Numbered from the stretch's first letter, positions 25,932-51,912 are shown. The stretch: DNA of 64,000 nt from Mollicutes bacterium (GCA_003554025.1 PWFC01000020.1:1-64000), one strand, 5' to 3'. Program-made: numbers and translations. Notes: generated from the letters alone by a model not told the origin.

Positions 25932-25984
25932 TCGGGCATCGCCCTATTTTGCATAAACCATCCAACAGAAGGGAGTCGACCAAC

Positions 25985-26839
25985 ATGCCCAAAATAGGTG
26001 TTGTCGCATGTACGAACGCTTGCCTCGACTATTTCGACCATGATTACGACATTCGCATCCTGCGTTCCATCATTCATTTAGGAGAAGAGGAATACCTCGA
26101 CCACATCGAACTCAAAGCCGAAGAGTTTTATCGTCGCTTGCAAAGCGACGCCAAACTGTTTCCAAAAACTTCGCAACCGCCCACGGCGGAAATGATCAAA
26201 ACGTATGAATCCATGCAAAAAGACGGATACACCGACATCATCGTCGTGACGATTTCATCCCACATGAGCGGCATTTACGGCGCCGCGCAGGTCGCCGCAA
26301 AAAGCGTTCCCGATGTGAACGTACACGTTTTCGACTCAAAATCCGTCGCGTATCCGCAAGCGAAAATGGCGCTTTTGGCCGCCGAGATGGCGGAAAAAAG
26401 CAAACCCGTCAAAGAAATTTTGGATGCCCTTGAAGACATTCGCAGTCACAACCACATTTTCTTTGCGGTCAACACCTTGGCCTATCTTGTCAAAAACGGC
26501 CGCCTATCAAACGCTCAAGGGTTTATGGGCAGCATGTTGAAAATCAAGCCTCTGCTCCATATATCCAAAGAAGGAAAAGTCGAGAACATCGAAAAAATCC
26601 GCACCTTCAAAAAAGCGGTGAAACGCGTCGTTGAAATGTATCTTGAAGAAACAAAAAATCTCGATGTTTCGCCCTTTATTTGCCACGCCCACAACAAAGA
26701 GGTTCGCGATGAAATCGAAGCGGCCTTAAAAGAGGCCGACCCGAATTTGAAAGAAGTCTTCAGCATGCCCCTAACCCCTGCGGTCGGCGCCCATGCGGGC
26801 CCCGGCGCCATCGGGCTCGGCTATATACAAAACCGCTGA
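25985..26839 (+). CDS. DegV family fatty-acid-binding protein (paralog 1)
   Basis: The 284-residue protein is a DegV/FakB-like fold, which in other Bacillota binds a fatty acid and presents it to the kinase FakA. Family blocks are VVTISSHMSGIYGAAQ, the central FFAVNTLAYLVKNGRLS, LKIKPLLHISKEGKVE and the C-terminal GAHAGPGAIGLGYI. The usual N-terminal DSTADLP motif is replaced by ACTNACLDYFD, a feature shared with the other two paralogs here (45127-45984 and 47258-48130). The ATG at 25985 follows GGGAG. It is 53 bases after the adenosyltransferase gene without an intervening terminator and ends in a strong terminator. Confidence 0.9.
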   Translation: MPKIGVVACTNACLDYFDHDYDIRILRSIIHLGEEEYLDHIELKAEEFYRRLQSDAKLFPKTSQPPTAEMIKTYESMQKDGYTDIIVVTISSHMSGIYGAAQVAAKSVPDVNVHVFDSKSVAYPQAKMALLAAEMAEKSKPVKEILDALEDIRSHNHIFFAVNTLAYLVKNGRLSNAQGFMGSMLKIKPLLHISKEGKVENIEKIRTFKKAVKRVVEMYLEETKNLDVSPFICHAHNKEVRDEIEAALKEADPNLKEVFSMPLTPAVGAHAGPGAIGLGYIQNR

Positions 26840-45126: not shown

Positions 45127-45984
45127 ATGAAAAAGATTGGTTTTGTGGTATGCGGCAACTCCGGCATCGATTATTTGGATCACGACTACGACATTCGTGT
45201 CATCCGTTCCACGCTGCTTTTCGGCGACAAGGAATACACCGATTTCGTTGACATCAAGGCGGAGGATTTTTACAAGCAATTGAAAGAAAACCCCGATCTT
45301 CATCCGACCACCGCTCAAACGGCGACGGGGGTTATTTTGGAGACCTACGAACAACTCAAGAAAGACGGCTACACCGACGCAATCGTCGTTACGATTTCTT
45401 CGAAATTGAGCGGCACGTATGAAGGCGCCAAAATGGCCGCAAGCATGGTTGAAGGCATCAACGTGCACGTCTTCGATTCGCTTTCGCTTTCTTACAACGA
45501 AGCGTACATGGTCTTGCGCGCCGCAGAACTGGCGCAAGCGGGCAAGGACGTTCCCGAAATCATCGACGAACTCTCTTGGATTCGCGAACACCAAGGGCTT
45601 TATGTGTCGGTCGATACACTCAGGTACTTGGTCAAAAACGGCCGTTTAACCGGCGCGAGCGGATTTTTGGGATCGTTTTTGAAAATCAAGCCCATGCTCC
45701 ATTTGACACGCGAGGGGCGGGTTGAGCCTGTAGAAAAAATCCGGACCCGCAAAAAAGCGATTGAACGCATCATCGAAAAATTCCTTGACGATTTCGAAGA
45801 CGCAAAAAACATGGAAGTCTTCGTCATCCATTCGAACGCTTTTGACGCCATCGACTACGTCAAGGACAAACTAAAGGCCGCACGGCCCGATTTCGGCGAA
45901 ATCAAGGATTATCCGTTGACACCTGTGGTGGGCGCGCATGCGGGCCCTGGCGCCATCGCCATCGGGTGGATTTTGAAAAGATAA
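45127..45984 (+). CDS. DegV family fatty-acid-binding protein (paralog 2)
   Basis: The 285-residue protein is close to paralog 1: VVTISSKLSGTYEGAKM, VDTLRYLVKNGRLTGASGFLGSF, LKIKPMLHLTREGRVEP and C-terminal GAHAGPGAIAIGWI. Its N-terminus reads VCGNSGIDYLDHDYDIRVIR, again without the DSTADLP motif. It should bind a fatty acid for phosphorylation or transfer. CTGGAGG precedes the ATG. It has its own strong promoter and no nearby terminator; the MarR gene follows 49 bases later with a separate -10. Confidence 0.9.
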   Translation: MKKIGFVVCGNSGIDYLDHDYDIRVIRSTLLFGDKEYTDFVDIKAEDFYKQLKENPDLHPTTAQTATGVILETYEQLKKDGYTDAIVVTISSKLSGTYEGAKMAASMVEGINVHVFDSLSLSYNEAYMVLRAAELAQAGKDVPEIIDELSWIREHQGLYVSVDTLRYLVKNGRLTGASGFLGSFLKIKPMLHLTREGRVEPVEKIRTRKKAIERIIEKFLDDFEDAKNMEVFVIHSNAFDAIDYVKDKLKAARPDFGEIKDYPLTPVVGAHAGPGAIAIGWILKR

Positions 45985-46830: not shown

Positions 46831-47261
46831 AAAGCATTGAGCAATTCATCAAACGCGTGTTCAAAAACCATCCGCCTAAAGACCGCAGCCTCCAACAATT
46901 GATCGAGATGCTTGAGGAAAAGGTCGAGGATTTGAAAGAAGAGGGATACACCGAAGAAGACGCCATCGACAAAACCATCAAGGAATTCGGTGATTTAGAA
47001 GACTACGATTTGCCCAACATGGAAAAAGAAAAAAGACGCCATATACGCATCAAGACAATCAAACATCACAAAAACGCGTTGCTTTTTTCCGGGATATCCT
47101 CCGCGCTGATCATCGCCATTTCGCTTTTGTTGAATTTCGTGCTGTTTCGCGACCTCGGTGTCTTGTCGAAACCATGGTCCCCCATCGTTGCAATCGGCGT
47201 GCTTTTTTGGCCGCTTAGCCTACTATACAAACTATTAAATAAAAAGGGAGATATGTCATGA
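46827..47261 (+). CDS. HAAS-domain two-helix membrane protein
   Basis: The 144-residue protein starts with a HAAS/permease-prefix-like helical domain (about 1-70; LQQLIEMLEEKVEDLKEEGY, EDAIDKTIKEFGDLEDY), followed by a basic linker and two membrane helices (about 87-110 and 118-136). ATGA overlaps join it to the PadR gene on one side and to degV paralog 3 on the other. HAAS domains are thought to dock signalling partners such as histidine kinases or PadR-linked systems; the partner here is unknown. Confidence 0.8.
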   Translation: MKSIEQFIKRVFKNHPPKDRSLQQLIEMLEEKVEDLKEEGYTEEDAIDKTIKEFGDLEDYDLPNMEKEKRRHIRIKTIKHHKNALLFSGISSALIIAISLLLNFVLFRDLGVLSKPWSPIVAIGVLFWPLSLLYKLLNKKGDMS

Positions 47262-48130
47262 AAAAAACCGCAGTCATCGCTGTTAGCACAGGATGCTTGG
47301 ATTATCTTGACATCAAGCACGACAACCTCTTCATCATTCGCTGCAAAATCATCATGGGCGACAAAACCTACAACGATTATGTAGACCTAAACGCCGACAA
47401 GTTTTACGAAACCATCAAAAGCGATTCAAACATCATTCCCACTTCTTCAATGCCCTCGTTAGGGGAAATCACCGAAGCGTTTGAAGAGATTGAAAAGGCC
47501 GGGTACGAAGAGGTCATCGTCAACACCATCTCCAGCGCATTGAGCGGAACGTATCAGACTTGCCAAATGGCGAAAAATTCTTACGAAGGCAAGCTGGAGA
47601 TCCATCTTGTCGATACGAAGAACGCCGCCATCAGCGAGGGGTTCATCTCGCTTGAAGCGCTGCGACTCATTGAAGAAGGCAAAGACGCCAAAACGATCGT
47701 CCCCTACCTTGAAAAGCTTTCGCTTTGCCGCACGCAGTATTTCATGGTCGACAACCTACGGTTGCTTGTCAAAAACGGCCGTTTGAGCGGCGCGAGCGGA
47801 CTGCTTGGCCGCATGTTCAAAATCAAGCCGATTTTGGAAGTCAACGACGAAGGCAAAATCGTGCCCTTTGAAAAAGTGCGCACCCAAAGAAAGTCGCTCG
47901 AACGCATGGTCGATCATATCCTCGAACAACTCAAGTCGCTCGACAATTTCGTCATCACTTACAACACCAGCGACAACACCGAAGGGTTCGAATATGTCAA
48001 AAGCCGCATCGAAGCGCTTTACCCCAAAGTGAAATCCTACGCCGCGCCCATCACCCCCGTCATCGGGGCGCACACCGGGCACGGCACCGTCGGCATCGCG
48101 TATTTCGATTTGGACAAAGCCAAAGAGTAA
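47258..48130 (+). CDS. DegV family fatty-acid-binding protein (paralog 3)
   Basis: The 290-residue protein is the most divergent of the three DegV copies: VNTISSALSGTYQTCQMAKN, MVDNLRLLVKNGRLSGASGL, KIKPILEVNDEGKIVPFEK and GAHTGHGTVGIAYFDLD. The N-terminus AVSTGCLDYLDIKHDNLFIIR keeps the LDY motif in place of DSTADLP. It is the last gene of the MarR-PadR-HAAS-DegV unit, so its level is probably set by the two regulators. The ATG overlaps the HAAS stop. Confidence 0.9.
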   Translation: MKKTAVIAVSTGCLDYLDIKHDNLFIIRCKIIMGDKTYNDYVDLNADKFYETIKSDSNIIPTSSMPSLGEITEAFEEIEKAGYEEVIVNTISSALSGTYQTCQMAKNSYEGKLEIHLVDTKNAAISEGFISLEALRLIEEGKDAKTIVPYLEKLSLCRTQYFMVDNLRLLVKNGRLSGASGLLGRMFKIKPILEVNDEGKIVPFEKVRTQRKSLERMVDHILEQLKSLDNFVITYNTSDNTEGFEYVKSRIEALYPKVKSYAAPITPVIGAHTGHGTVGIAYFDLDKAKE

Positions 48131-48180: not shown

Positions 48181-48209
48181 TTGCATTTTCAATAGGAATC
48201 GGTTATACT
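48181..48209 (+). promoter_or_regulatory. Promoter of the EetB-like gene
   Basis: TTGCAT (48181-48186) and TATACT (48204-48209) are spaced by 17 bases. The 40-base leader holds a small hairpin CCACG (48227-48231) / CGTGG (48236-48240). Confidence 0.75.
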
Positions 48210-48255
48210 AAAACGCGCAAATTCCGCCACGCAACCGTGGACGATAGGTGGTTTC

Positions 48256-48771
48256 ATGAACACGAAAAGATTGGTGTTTCTCGCGATTATGCTCACCGTG
48301 AGCATAGCGCTCAATATTATAGAACGACTCGTGCTGATGGGGTTCACCGGCCTTCCCATGGTCCGCCTTGGCCTTGCGAACGTCGTCGTTTTGATTTTGC
48401 TTTACGTGTATTCTTTCCGCGACGCTTTCGCCGTGCTTTTGCTTCGGATTCTTCTCGTCGGCCTCCTTGCTCCGGGCGCTACGATTTTTTCTTTTTTCCT
48501 GTCCTTGGCGGGCGGTCTTTTCGCCATCGCGATGATGACGCTTTTCAAACGGCTTCCGTCTTTTAGCATCATAGGCGTCAGCGTAATGGGCGCGGCCGGT
48601 CATGCCGTTGGCCAGATTTTGACGGCGGTGTTTTTGTTCTCAACAGAAGAAGTCGTCTTCATCCTTCCTTTGTTCATGACCTTGAGCATTCCGACCGGTG
48701 TTTTCACCGGAATCGTGGCCAAGCGGATGATTGTTCTTTTGAAACAGACATCCTCGACCTACGAATATTAA
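48256..48771 (+). CDS. EetB-like / heptaprenyl-diphosphate-synthase-component-I family membrane protein
   Basis: The 171-residue protein belongs to the Gx-transporter/Hpre_diP_synt_I family, with five hydrophobic segments and the core block LPMVRLGLANVVVLILLY, then FRDAFAVLLLRILLVGLL, and GHAVGQILTAVFLF. In Listeria this family member (EetB) is encoded in the flavin-based extracellular electron transfer locus and is thought to supply flavin to the cell surface. Here apbE-like, PplA-like and NusG II genes follow, supporting the same role. AGGTGG precedes the ATG. The substrate is inferred from context. Confidence 0.84.
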   Translation: MNTKRLVFLAIMLTVSIALNIIERLVLMGFTGLPMVRLGLANVVVLILLYVYSFRDAFAVLLLRILLVGLLAPGATIFSFFLSLAGGLFAIAMMTLFKRLPSFSIIGVSVMGAAGHAVGQILTAVFLFSTEEVVFILPLFMTLSIPTGVFTGIVAKRMIVLLKQTSSTYEY

Positions 48772-48803
48772 AAAAATCTCGCCGGATAGCGAGATTTTTT
48801 TAT
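48771..48803. terminator. Bidirectional terminator between the EetB-like gene and apbE
   Basis: AATCTCGC (48775-48782) pairs with GCGAGATT (48789-48796) around CGGATA, with an A-run before and T-run after. It serves both converging genes. Confidence 0.9.
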
Positions 48804-50083
48804 TTTTTCTGTTTGCGGATGCGCAAAACCAGCAACACGCCTCCTGCGGCGACGATGAATCCGCCGCCAATGACCAAAAGAGGCAAGATGCAAGGCGGAC
48901 GGTCCTCGGGAGCGCTCCATTCATGACCGTGCAGAAGTTCGCCTTCAAAGCCTTCCGTTTTGAAGATGCGGCCGTCGGCGCCGTAGAAAACGCCTTCGGT
49001 ATCTTCGAGATTTTCAACGAACGCAAGCGCTTCTTCAAGCGGCATCAAAAACGCGGCGGTTACCAAGATGTCGCCGATTAAGGGGTCGTCGGTCTCTAAC
49101 CACGCACCCAAAAAATAGTCCTTTTGCGTGTTGCAAAGCAGTTCGTCACGGATGCGTTCGAAACGGCTTTGGTCTTCTTCAAGCGAACCGCTCGGATAAA
49201 GGGTGTAGGGGTTGATCAGATGGTGGTAGCGCACGCCGTCGACTTCGAAATAGCGTTCGTAGTTTCCGCTGCCGACGATGTTTCTTCCATCGGCGATGAA
49301 AATTTCGGCGAACACTTCCCGCTCACCGCGAATGATCGACCATATGTCGGGTTCAAAGGCAGGGTCGACAAATTCGATTTTCCAAAGACCGCTTTCTCTT
49401 GTGGGGTGTTCTCCGTAGACTTCGATGTTCGAAGTGCCGGCGTTTAGGATGAACGCTTCGATTTCGTCATACGTTTTAAGGTATTCTCCGGCGACTTTCG
49501 CGCCATAGCCTTTGGCGATGCCGCCCAAGTCGAGCTTCATGCCTTCTTCGATGCGGACGGTCCGGTTTTCCTCATCGAGCGTGACATCTTTGATGTCCGT
49601 ATGACGGTCGGCCTCGTTCAATTCATCTTCGGTGGGCAAGTCTTCCCTTTCCAATTCGCAGTGCATGCCGGAGCACATATCGAGACGCTCTTGCCATAGC
49701 GAGATGATTGGTCCGAGGGCGATGTTGAAATAGCCGTCGGTCTTCTCGTAGTATTCAACGCCCAACGAAATCATCTCGAAAAGGTGAACGTCCACTTCGT
49801 GGTCGACGCCCGGATTTTCGTTGATGGTGCGCAGGTTTGTCAGGTCTTCGTAATCGTCGAAGATGGTCGCGAGCCTATGAATTTCTTGCAGCGTGTCTTC
49901 AAAACCCGACAAAATGCCGTCAATGTCGGCTTCAGTTGTCGCATACAGCGTCAAATCGATGGTCGTGTCGTAATATTGGGTGTATGTGCGCTCGGTGCGG
50001 ATTGGTTCTTCCGTTTCGCCCGAAAGCGAAGCCGGGAAGCTTAGGGTTAGAGCACCAAGCAGAAGAAGCAGTATTTTACGCAT
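48800..50083 (-). CDS. apbE: FAD:protein FMN transferase, surface-anchored (ApbE/FmnB-like)
   Basis: The 427-residue enzyme attaches FMN covalently to threonine residues of target proteins outside the membrane. It has an N-terminal signal sequence (LLLLLGALTLSFPASL) without a lipobox Cys, the ApbE body with YYDTTIDLTLYA, LDLGGIAKGYGAKVAGEYL, AFILNAGTSNIEVYGEH and the metal/FAD segment YHHLINPYTLYPSG, and an extra C-terminal membrane helix (LPLLVIGGGFIVAAGGVLLVL) with a KKK-type tail. The enzyme is therefore anchored at its C-terminus, unlike lipoprotein FmnB. The likely target is the twin-repeat lipoprotein gene just upstream. AAAGGAACG supports the start at 50083. Confidence 0.9.
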   Translation of the reverse strand: MRKILLLLLGALTLSFPASLSGETEEPIRTERTYTQYYDTTIDLTLYATTEADIDGILSGFEDTLQEIHRLATIFDDYEDLTNLRTINENPGVDHEVDVHLFEMISLGVEYYEKTDGYFNIALGPIISLWQERLDMCSGMHCELEREDLPTEDELNEADRHTDIKDVTLDEENRTVRIEEGMKLDLGGIAKGYGAKVAGEYLKTYDEIEAFILNAGTSNIEVYGEHPTRESGLWKIEFVDPAFEPDIWSIIRGEREVFAEIFIADGRNIVGSGNYERYFEVDGVRYHHLINPYTLYPSGSLEEDQSRFERIRDELLCNTQKDYFLGAWLETDDPLIGDILVTAAFLMPLEEALAFVENLEDTEGVFYGADGRIFKTEGFEGELLHGHEWSAPEDRPPCILPLLVIGGGFIVAAGGVLLVLRIRKQKK

Positions 50084-50109
50084 AGAAATCGTTCCTTTCA
50101 ACCGCTGAC

Positions 50110-50118
50110 ATTATACCA
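50110..50118 (-). promoter_or_regulatory. Extended -10 promoter of apbE
   Basis: On the minus strand TGGTATAAT reads from 50118 to 50110. It lies between the PplA-like terminator and apbE, so the two genes can be transcribed separately. Confidence 0.6.
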
Positions 50119-50147
50119 CGCCGTACTCCAAAGCGAAAGATTGGCGC

Positions 50148-50179
50148 AAAAAAAATGCGCTTCCGAAGAAGCGCATTTT
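50148..50179 (-). terminator. Terminator of the PplA-like gene
   Basis: AAAATGCGCTTC (50152-50163) pairs with GAAGCGCATTTT (50168-50179) around CGAA. The T-run needed for minus-strand termination is formed by the A-run at 50148-50155. Confidence 0.88.
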
Positions 50180-50185
50180 CAAGAA

Positions 50186-51070
50186 TCAGTCCCAGCCAAG
50201 AGCGTTGCGGATGGCACTGAGGTAGCCACCGATATTGATGGTGACACCGGCAACGGCATCTGCAGGGTCTTCTTCAAGACCGCTTGGAATGGCTTGAGCC
50301 TCGACGATTGCCGTGGCAATCATGTCGATTTGTTCGACCCATAGATATTCGTTGTCGTCGGTCATGATGTAGCCGTAACCGTAATCAAGCGTACGTTTGG
50401 TGATGGCGATTTCATTGTCGTCATCGTCGGTGGTGGTGTAGACGCTGTCGATCATGATGTGCTCAATGAATCCGTCTTCGTTAACGGCCACATAAGCATG
50501 ATCGTTGCGATGGCCTTCGGTGTAGCCGTGATGGATGCCCGCTTCAAGGTCCGAAGTGCCTTCGCCTTCAGGGACGTCGAAGTCATGTGGGCTTTCACCG
50601 TCTTCTAGACGTGCGCGATCAAGCGCGTTATTCAAAGCTTCCAAATATCCATCCACGGAAATGGTAACACCCGCTAGGGCATCGCTCGGATCGACAAGGT
50701 CTCCATCTTCATCCACTTCGTCTTCCAATTCACCTTGGTTTTCGACCAACACATCAATCAACATGTTCAGCTGTTCAATCCAAAGGTGGTCGCCGCTGCC
50801 TGACATGGTATAGTCGTAGCCGTCGTTCAAGGTACGCTTGGTGATTGCGATTTCATTGTCTTCATCGTCGGTGGTGGTGTAGACGCTGTCGATGAAGATG
50901 TCCTTGATAAACCCGTCGCGGTCGATATAAACGTAAACGACGTCGTTACGGTGTCCTTCCGTGTACCCTAGGTGCAAACCGGGTTGGAATTCGCCGAGAT
51001 CTTCCGATCCACACGCCGCGATCACCAATACGCTGACCAAAGCGACAAAAACGCTTAGTAGTTTCTTCAC
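50186..51070 (-). CDS. PplA-like lipoprotein with two FMN-attachment repeats
   Basis: The 294-residue lipoprotein (lipobox VIAAC, Cys20) holds two repeats of about 110 residues (30-150 and 175-294) that share GYTEGHRND, IDSVYTTTDD and NEIAITKRTL. Each ends in an ApbE-type flavinylation site: DALAGVTISVDGYLEAL with Thr136 and DAVAGVTINIGGYLSAI with Thr277, matching D-x-x-[SA]-G-[AV]-T. Two covalent FMN are therefore predicted, as in Listeria PplA, which carries electrons to extracellular acceptors. The start is GTG, 8 bases after AAGGAGGA. The gene is preceded by a consensus promoter and followed by the ApbE gene on the same strand. Confidence 0.88.
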   Translation of the reverse strand: MKKLLSVFVALVSVLVIAACGSEDLGEFQPGLHLGYTEGHRNDVVYVYIDRDGFIKDIFIDSVYTTTDDEDNEIAITKRTLNDGYDYTMSGSGDHLWIEQLNMLIDVLVENQGELEDEVDEDGDLVDPSDALAGVTISVDGYLEALNNALDRARLEDGESPHDFDVPEGEGTSDLEAGIHHGYTEGHRNDHAYVAVNEDGFIEHIMIDSVYTTTDDDDNEIAITKRTLDYGYGYIMTDDNEYLWVEQIDMIATAIVEAQAIPSGLEEDPADAVAGVTINIGGYLSAIRNALGWD

Positions 51071-51107
51071 GATTAGTCCTCCTTATTATTATTGTTTGAC
51101 CTTTTAC

Positions 51108-51136
51108 ATTATAAGAAGAAAGGAGGTATATGTCAA
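51108..51136 (-). promoter_or_regulatory. Consensus SigA promoter of the PplA-like gene
   Basis: On the minus strand TTGACA (51136-51131) and TATAAT (51113-51108) are spaced by exactly 17 bases. This is the closest match to consensus in the window, so the lipoprotein is probably made in large amounts. Confidence 0.92.
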
Positions 51137-51190
51137 AAAATCGGATAAAATTCTAAATAACATTCGATATTATAAAGAAGCGTTTTCGGC

Positions 51191-51220
51191 TTGCAACGAC
51201 CAAGGGGTTTCAAGTATACT
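51191..51220 (+). promoter_or_regulatory. Promoter of the EetA-like gene
   Basis: TTGCAA (51191-51196) and TATACT (51215-51220) are spaced by 18 bases. It diverges from the PplA-like promoter. Confidence 0.65.
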
Positions 51221-51258
51221 ATGAATGAAAGTAAGGCAATTGTTTGAGGCGAAAGCGT

Positions 51259-51672
51259 ATGAAACGAAACGATATAGTGTTGATTGCAGTTTTATTGGCG
51301 TTCAGTTTGGCGGCGCTTTTCGGCGTGCGCCACCTTCAAAACCTCACGGCCTCCGAAGACGGAACCGCCAGGGTTTTTTATCAGGGCGCTCTGATTCTTG
51401 AAATCGAGTTGGAAGACGGAAGCGCAAGGGCGTTTCACGACGATGTGATCATCGACGAAGAAAACCAAACATTCATCGTCCCCGGCAACCTGGGCGATGT
51501 GACCATCCGCTATCAAAACCATCAAGTCGAAGTGATCGACGAAACCAGCCCCCGCAACATCTGCCAGCACCAAGGGAAGACGAATTCTCCCTATAAACCG
51601 CTCACCTGCCTGCCCAACGACGTAGTGATCCGCATTGAGCGGGCCACCGACAGCGACGGCATCGTGCAATAA
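51259..51672 (+). CDS. NusG domain II protein (EetA-like)
   Basis: The 137-residue protein has one N-terminal membrane helix (about 5-22) and an extracellular NusG_II domain: ARVFYQGALILEIELEDG, VTIRYQNHQVEVIDETSP, ICQHQGKTNSPYKPLTCLPN, DVVIRIERAT. The Cys pair in NICQHQG and LTCLPN is the family hallmark. In Listeria the homologue is EetA and sits in the flavin electron transfer locus. The start ATG at 51259 has only a weak ribosome site (GAGGCG). The DUF1146 gene follows 18 bases after the stop. Confidence 0.87.
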   Translation: MKRNDIVLIAVLLAFSLAALFGVRHLQNLTASEDGTARVFYQGALILEIELEDGSARAFHDDVIIDEENQTFIVPGNLGDVTIRYQNHQVEVIDETSPRNICQHQGKTNSPYKPLTCLPNDVVIRIERATDSDGIVQ

Positions 51673-51690
51673 CTTCAAGGAGGAATGAAC

Positions 51691-51912
51691 ATGGACCAAA
51701 TGACAATGGATATTTTTGAAGCGTTGCTTTTTTTCATCATTTTGGCGGTCACGTTCAAAGCCATCGTCAAAATCGACATCACCAAGCACTTTGAAAAAGG
51801 CGCCATCTGGCAAATGCAAATCACCTACGTTTTCCTTGCCATCGGACTCAGTTATCTAGTGTTGAAAGCGATTATGAATCTTGTGGAAATTTCACGCAGA
51901 TTGTTCACATAG
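51691..51912 (+). CDS. DUF1146 (YwzB-like) membrane protein
   Basis: The 73-residue protein has two membrane helices (about 9-25 and 46-66) and the family pattern IFEALLFFIILAVTFKAI, then KGAIWQMQITYVFLAIGLSY. YwzB is widely conserved in Bacillota, near ATP synthase or peptidoglycan genes, with unknown function. AAGGAGG (51677-51683) is too close to the ATG at 51685, so the ATG at 51691 is preferred. It is probably co-transcribed with the NusG II gene. Its TAG abuts the stop of the convergent YigZ gene with no base between them. Confidence 0.84.
   Translation: MDQMTMDIFEALLFFIILAVTFKAIVKIDITKHFEKGAIWQMQITYVFLAIGLSYLVLKAIMNLVEISRRLFT

What the first reader, a model, noticed from the sequence alone, without database searches (positions are those of the whole stretch)
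48181..51912. Probable flavin-based extracellular electron transfer locus
Four adjacent genes match the parts of the Listeria EET system: an EetB-like membrane protein, an ApbE/FmnB-type flavin transferase, a PplA-like lipoprotein and an EetA-like NusG II protein. The order and strands differ from Listeria, and Ndh2 and the quinone genes (dmkA/dmkB) are not in the window. If the host belongs to the Mollicute-related lineages, a respiratory-type electron outlet in a fermenter would be notable.
Basis: partly seen in the sequence, partly recalled or inferred. Interest (0 to 1): 0.75.

Follow-up and report, generated by a model that had tools for sequence, protein, structure and literature searches.

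The report
Flavin-electron lipoprotein locus lacking its dehydrogenase
Four neighbouring genes in an uncultured Mollicute-like fermenter export flavin, attach it to proteins outside the cell and encode a probably flavin-carrying surface lipoprotein, but the genome lacks the dehydrogenase that feeds the Listeria version and instead has the Rnf membrane complex, which is the likelier electron source.

Summary
The four genes are real, intact and under purifying selection: EetB-type ECF-S protein (48256-48771 +), ApbE flavin transferase (48800-50083 -), tandem FMN-domain lipoprotein (50186-51070 -) and EetA-type NusG_II protein (51259-51672 +). The lipoprotein aligns over its full length with PplA-like lipoproteins encoded beside EET-type Ndh2 in other Bacilli, so the PplA resemblance holds. 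Its motif is D-x-x-[AS]-G-V-[ST], not the SGAT reported for Listeria.

The Listeria-type reading fails at its defining part. No Ndh2 was found in this genome or in 60 relatives, although the same query finds true Ndh2 at E about 1e-187 in other families. No UbiA (DmkA) family gene was found either. The genome does carry an Rnf operon with an RnfG of tandem FMN-type domains. The window's ApbE is the only one found, so it must serve Rnf. In five sister genera the syntenic island contains a whole Rnf operon next to the same lipoprotein. Across the class, PplA-like lipoproteins co-occur with Rnf (68 of 77 genomes versus 82 of 180) and often sit within 0.4-5 kb of it.

Best reading: a flavin-export, flavinylation and lipoprotein module that works with Rnf, probably as an electron outlet. 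The outward transfer step and its acceptor are inferred.

The parts
48256..48771 (+). EetB-like ECF-S protein (Hpre_diP_synt_I, PF07456), 171 aa; predicted FAD-export substrate subunit
   Evidence: Pfam 7e-34, full length; conserved in synteny in the genus and family; Listeria EetB is the FAD-exporting ECF-S (PMC9973259)
48769..48802 (+). inverted repeat with flanking A/T runs between the convergent eetB and apbE genes, likely shared terminator
   Evidence: and the sequence
48800..50083 (-). ApbE flavin transferase (427 aa from the ATG; 433 aa from an upstream TTG at 50101); signal peptide at the start and a C-terminal transmembrane segment
   Evidence: Pfam 9e-51; PDB hits TM1553 3e-28 and FmnB 7esa 2.5e-25 with SG.YER, YHH and the catalytic Asp conserved; the only ApbE found in the genome
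50186..51070 (-). PplA-like lipoprotein, 294 aa, lipobox IAAC, two tandem FMN_bind-type domains each ending in a flavinylation-like motif (DALAGVT, DAVAGVT)
   Evidence: Pfam FMN_bind 1.5e-6; alignment A1; profile match to Ndh2-linked PplA-like proteins E 2.6e-28
51108..51136 (-). perfect consensus sigma-70 promoter-like site (TTGACA-17-TATAAT) upstream of the lipoprotein gene
   Evidence: 12 of 12; pattern match only
51259..51672 (+). EetA-like protein: N-terminal membrane anchor plus NusG_II domain with two Cys that are conserved in the relatives read
   Evidence: Pfam NusG_II 2.2e-16; conserved beside the lipoprotein in the genus and family
51691..51912 (+). DUF1146 small membrane protein, 73 aa, conserved between EetA and YigZ in the family; no known link to the electron pathway
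   Evidence: Pfam 1.1e-6; 72-74 aa ORF at the same place in relatives

Best explanation
The locus is the flavin-export, flavinylation and acceptor half of a Gram-positive flavin-based electron outlet, fed by the Rnf complex and not by Ndh2 plus quinone. Shown: the gene identities; an Rnf operon elsewhere in the genome (contig C78) whose RnfG has tandem FMN-type domains; a single ApbE; an EcfA-EcfA'-EcfT set; no Ndh2 found. Inferred: EetB with EcfTAA' exports FAD; ApbE uses it to flavinylate RnfG, RnfD and the lipoprotein; electrons reaching the outward FMN domains of RnfG pass to the two FMNs of the lipoprotein and on to an extracytoplasmic acceptor (Fe(III), soluble flavins or quinones, or sulfur compounds; not determined). 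A minimum version, in which ApbE, EetA and EetB mainly mature Rnf, follows from the same data and is more certain than the outlet step.
For: Rnf operon RnfC-D-G-E-A-B at C78:5232-11042. RnfG of about 470 aa in the genus with motifs DGRTGAT and DALAGGT (alignment A3). One ApbE in the genome. EcfA-EcfA'-EcfT on C20. No Ndh2 with a working positive control. In genera g6, g7, g9, g11 and g17 of the same family the syntenic island holds a full Rnf operon between ApbE and the PplA-like lipoprotein/EetA/YigZ, as far as contigs reach. G032 keeps only an RnfC-like and an RnfD-like gene at that spot. In family f13 the four genes form one operon (G115, G070) and four of five f13 genomes with the lipoprotein have Rnf, none has Ndh2. 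Class-wide co-occurrence 68/77 vs 82/180, Fisher p 2.6e-11 (4e-9 without the own family), and 16 genomes in five families with the lipoprotein 0.4-5 kb from Rnf genes. ApbE tree: the window's ApbE groups with the family's, Rnf-island ApbEs included (95/96), apart from Ndh2-linked ApbEs. Literature: EetB is the FAD exporter and often colocalises with Rnf (PMC9973259); multi-flavinylated RnfG was proposed to give a second, outward electron path (PMC8238504).
Against: In this genome the lipoprotein and Rnf are on different contigs (94 kb apart on one contig in G002). The motif has Val where the canonical one has Ala; that change about halved flavinylation in a Klebsiella fumarate reductase (PMC12052999). 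The AlphaFold model had no significant PDB match, so the flavin fold is not confirmed by structure. The co-occurrence test does not correct for phylogeny. No biochemical data exist for these proteins.
Confidence: 0.6

Rival explanations
1. Canonical Listeria-type EET: a type II NADH dehydrogenase reduces demethylmenaquinone, which reduces the PplA-like lipoprotein; the missing genes lie in the unassembled part of the genome.
For: EetA, EetB, ApbE and a two-domain PplA-like lipoprotein are present; PplA-like relatives do sit beside Ndh2 in G082, G129 and G097; two of the five other genus members have a UbiA-family gene.
Against: All strong Pyr_redox_2 hits in the genome look like other enzymes (dihydrolipoamide dehydrogenase, CoA-disulfide-reductase type, thioredoxin reductase, a 2Fe-2S-linked oxidoreductase). 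The Ndh2 query finds nothing at E<=0.001 in the 96%-complete genus-mates G002 and G004 and nothing better than 6e-13 in 61 genomes, against 1e-187 for true Ndh2 elsewhere. No UbiA in own genome, G002, G003 or G005.
Confidence: 0.07
2. Pure Rnf maturation locus: EetB and ApbE supply covalent FMN to RnfG and RnfD, EetA assists, and the lipoprotein is an accessory (flavin store or chaperone) that carries no respiratory current outward.
For: Single ApbE in the genome; eetB colocalises with Rnf in 572 Clostridia genomes (PMC9973259); the Rnf complex is present.
Against: The lipoprotein is a conserved two-site FMN-type protein, related to lipoproteins beside Ndh2, where an electron role is established for Listeria PplA; an accessory for Rnf maturation would not be expected next to Ndh2.
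Confidence: 0.22
3. Rnf-driven extracytoplasmic sulfur (polysulfide or thiosulfate) reduction: the flavin lipoproteins deliver electrons to sulfur species, as suggested by rhodanese domains in the sister islands; the window lineage keeps a reduced version.
For: In the sister-genus islands the PplA-like domain is fused to a rhodanese domain (active-site loop C-x-x-G-x-R-A in all six read) and a second rhodanese-fold lipoprotein and an [FeFe]-hydrogenase are encoded in the same island; thiosulfate is reported to promote growth of the related isolate X. coldseepsis (PMC8397711).
Against: The window's own lipoprotein has no rhodanese domain and no hydrogenase gene was seen beside it; acceptor untested.
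Confidence: 0.11

Closest known systems
[quoted passage not shown]
   Same: EetA, EetB, ApbE/FmnB and a lipoprotein with two FMN-type domains
   Different: No Ndh2 and no UbiA/DmkA found; order and strands differ; motif GVT instead of the two SGAT motifs reported for Listeria (PMC7074142); ApbE has a C-terminal transmembrane segment; ApbE groups apart from Ndh2-linked ApbEs
Rnf clusters with eetA/eetB/apbE in Firmicutes (PMC9973259) and multi-flavinylated RnfG clusters (PMC8238504)
   Same: EetA, EetB and ApbE with Rnf in the genome; RnfG with tandem FMN-type domains; in sister genera all in one island
   Different: In the window lineage the module is unlinked from Rnf; a PplA-like lipoprotein is a constant member; RnfB lacks the C-terminal ferredoxin domain
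Nqr/Rnf-like unidirectional systems (PMC8238504, PMC11334425)
   Same: Idea of one-way electron flow from the cytosol to an extracytosolic FMN protein; G032 has only RnfC-like and RnfD-like genes in the island
   Different: No NqrF-type domain fused to RnfD; a complete Rnf is present in this genome

Membership tests
Listeria-type flavin-based EET | Ndh2 with transmembrane part in or near the flavinylation cluster (operational definition, PMC8238504) | tested here: not met
   positive control. Genome 91.6% complete; genus-mates at 96% also lack it
Listeria-type flavin-based EET | demethylmenaquinone synthesis (DmkA, UbiA family) | tested here: not met
   no PF01040 match in own genome; present in 2 of 5 other genus members and 10 of 41 genomes searched. 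DmkB not searched
Listeria-type flavin-based EET | PplA: secreted lipoprotein with two flavinylation sites | tested here: met
   lipobox, two domains, motif variant D-x-x-[AS]-G-V-[ST]; full-length profile match to Ndh2-linked relatives. Listeria PplA itself was not available for comparison; flavinylation untested
Listeria-type flavin-based EET | ApbE/FmnB transferase | tested here: met
   Pfam 9e-51; FmnB structure hit 2.5e-25 with catalytic residues aligned
Listeria-type flavin-based EET | EetA and EetB | tested here: met
   PF07009 2e-16, PF07456 7e-34
Listeria-type flavin-based EET | ECF-T/A subunits for FAD export (FmnA, EcfAA') | tested here: met
   one EcfT beside two EcfA on C20; no second EcfT that would be a dedicated FmnA
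Listeria-type flavin-based EET | ferric iron or electrode reduction | not testable with these tools
   uncultured MAG
Rnf complex with ApbE/EetAB accessory genes | RnfC, D, G, E, A, B in the genome | tested here: met
   C78:5232-11042, Pfam for each subunit
Rnf complex with ApbE/EetAB accessory genes | RnfB with C-terminal ferredoxin domain | tested here: not met
   only the FeS domain PF04060; 98-110 aa in 16 relatives' Rnf operons
Rnf complex with ApbE/EetAB accessory genes | genomic linkage of the module to rnf | tested here: inconclusive
   unlinked in the window genome and G002; linked in five sister genera at the syntenic site

The most novel reading that the evidence does not exclude
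Rnf, with a multi-FMN RnfG and an RnfB without its ferredoxin domain, drives a PplA-type flavolipoprotein electron outlet in Mollicute-related fermenters, independent of Ndh2 and quinone; in sister genera the same outlet is joined to an [FeFe]-hydrogenase and to rhodanese-PplA fusions, making a quinone-free extracytoplasmic sulfur or metal respiration.
Probability: 0.35. Interest if true: 0.78.

Novelty: new variant of a known kind. Interest (0 to 1): 0.52.

Why it matters
Known Gram-positive EET is fed by Ndh2 through quinone. A PplA-type lipoprotein in genomes with Rnf and without Ndh2 or DmkA would mean that strict fermenters can vent electrons outside straight from an ion-pumping complex, changing their energy budget and their role in iron or sulfur cycling in soda-lake sediments. 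It also contradicts a published statement that cad(pplA)-apbE pairs occur only where rnf is missing (PMC7074142).

Tried and rejected
AlphaFold model of the lipoprotein: one of five models reached pLDDT 80, the others about 35, and Foldseek gave no hit at E<=0.001, so structure was not used as evidence. Profile comparison of the lipoprotein with the genus RnfG gave no relation beyond the motif. NCBIfam gave no specific name for the lipoprotein. C69 Pyr_redox_2 hits were examined as Ndh2 candidates and rejected: they sit with a 2Fe-2S protein and a DAO-type oxidase (assignment by sequence likeness). In one search the ORF printed for L075 is out of frame and was ignored.

Full report
What is there. 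The window is nearly all of contig C19 of a 1.51 Mb, 91.6% complete draft genome. Its genus-mates in the named collection are 'Mollicutes bacterium' MAGs from hypersaline soda-lake sediments, a group described as NB1-n relatives, free-living anaerobic sugar fermenters (PMC6146748). The four genes of the finding are intact and identified by Pfam: EetB-like PF07456, ApbE PF02424, FMN_bind lipoprotein PF04205 and EetA-like NusG_II PF07009. A fifth small gene, DUF1146, fills the end of the interval. The same order recurs through the genus: DegV, EetB (+), ApbE (-), lipoprotein (-), EetA (+), DUF1146 (+), YigZ (-) (EetB and DegV were not seen beside ApbE in G004). dN/dS of 0.08-0.14 against G005 shows purifying selection on all four.

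The lipoprotein. It has a lipobox (IAAC) and two tandem domains. Invariant features of the genus and family alignment are TK, Y.M, W, Q and D...GV[ST] at the end of each domain. The profile matches, over nearly its full length, a set of PplA-like lipoproteins led by one that is divergently transcribed from an EET-type Ndh2 and followed by ApbE in G082 (hhalign E 2.6e-28). The set was gathered with the same profile, so the E-value is not an independent discovery, but full-length co-linearity and the independent Pfam FMN_bind match in both support kinship. The flavinylation motif differs from the canonical D-x-x-[ST]-G-A-[ST] by Ala to Val; this change lowered flavinylation to about half in one tested protein (PMC12052999). 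Listeria orthologues are reported to carry two SGAT motifs (PMC7074142). The Ndh2-linked protein of G082 also has SGVT twice. The structure model gave no PDB match and is not used.

Electron input. The operational definition of the EET system is an Ndh2 with a membrane part near the flavinylation genes (PMC8238504). All strong Pyr_redox_2 hits of this genome were inspected and look like other enzymes (assignments by sequence and neighbours). An EET-type Ndh2 query finds nothing in the two 96%-complete genus-mates and only weak N-terminal matches (best 6e-13) in 61 genomes, while it recovers true Ndh2 at E about 1e-187 in two genera of another family. No UbiA-family gene was found in this genome, though two genus-mates have one. 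In contrast, Rnf is present: RnfC, D, G, E, A and B at C78:5232-11042 and the Rnf-Nqr family in 58 of 61 genomes. RnfG of the genus is about 470 aa with a canonical first motif (DGRTGAT) and a second at the C-terminus (DALAGGT here, SGAT in G004). The window's ApbE is the only one found, so it must serve Rnf whatever else it does. EcfA, EcfA' and EcfT for the proposed FAD exporter lie on C20.

Comparative evidence for an Rnf partner. In genera g6, g7, g9, g11 and g17 of the same family, the island between ApbE and the lipoprotein/EetA/YigZ holds a whole Rnf operon, preceded by a NuoF-type fragment and an [FeFe]-hydrogenase (PF02906 5e-88 in G011) (in G033 and G011 one end lies beyond the stretch read). 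G032 keeps only RnfC-like and RnfD-like genes at that spot. Whether the window lineage lost the operon or the others gained it is not decided. In family f13 ApbE, EetA, EetB and a one-domain lipoprotein form one operon in G115 and G070; four of five f13 genomes with the lipoprotein have Rnf, and none has Ndh2. Across 257 genomes of the class Rnf is found in 68 of 77 with a PplA-like match and in 82 of 180 without (p 2.6e-11; 4e-9 without the own family; phylogeny not corrected). Of the nine exceptions, four belong to genus g39, where Ndh2 was found in both members tested, and two to g33, where the one island read holds RnfC- and RnfD-like genes with ApbE and EetA. In 16 genomes of five families the lipoprotein lies 0.4-5 kb from Rnf genes. 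The ApbE tree places the window's enzyme with its family, Rnf-island members included (95/96), apart from the Ndh2-linked ones.

Mechanism. Steps shown by sequence: the parts and their conservation. Steps from established knowledge: EetB is the FAD-exporting ECF-S and ApbE moves FMN from FAD to Thr/Ser (PMC9973259). Inferred: transfer of electrons from RnfG's outer FMN domains to the lipoprotein and onward. A second, outward path from multi-flavinylated RnfG has been proposed before (PMC8238504), so the idea is not new; what is added is a specific partner, the PplA-like lipoprotein, in a lineage without Ndh2.

Verdict. Observation confirmed; Listeria-type EET not supported at its defining parts; an Rnf-linked variant is the best reading, with the outlet step unproven. 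Sister genera with rhodanese-PplA fusions point to sulfur as one possible acceptor there, but the window's lipoprotein has no such domain.

Noticed in passing
L084, L086, L090, L093, L095, L072 (same family): Rnf operon with an [FeFe]-hydrogenase, a NuoF-type fragment and PplA-like domains fused to rhodanese (C-x-x-G-x-R-A active-site loop), plus a second rhodanese-fold lipoprotein without that loop and a third with a YLSCTCR-like motif.
   Followed up: partly
L056:10644-11042 and 16 relatives' Rnf operons: RnfB is only about 100 aa: membrane anchor and one FeS domain, without the C-terminal ferredoxin domain that accepts electrons in characterised Rnf; the electron entry point is unexplained.
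   Followed up: partly
L068:2382-4503: G032 has an RnfC-like and an RnfD-like gene alone between ApbE and the lipoprotein; the RnfC-like protein barely matches the NADH/FMN domain (Complex1_51K E 0.009), a possible remnant or one-way system.
   Followed up: partly
L141:5937-8315, L143:7645-9948: Small genomes of another family carry ApbE-EetA-EetB-PplA-like as one compact operon.
   Followed up: partly
L073:8636-11125: 829-aa lipoprotein with several PplA-like repeats directly downstream of an Rnf operon (G040).
   Followed up: no
window 51108-51136 (-): Perfect consensus sigma-70 promoter-like site upstream of the lipoprotein gene, suggesting strong expression.
   Followed up: no
window 25949-26839, 45127-45984, 47258-48130: Three DegV/FakB-like genes in one contig (the first judged by sequence likeness only); one is constantly beside EetB in the family.
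   Followed up: no
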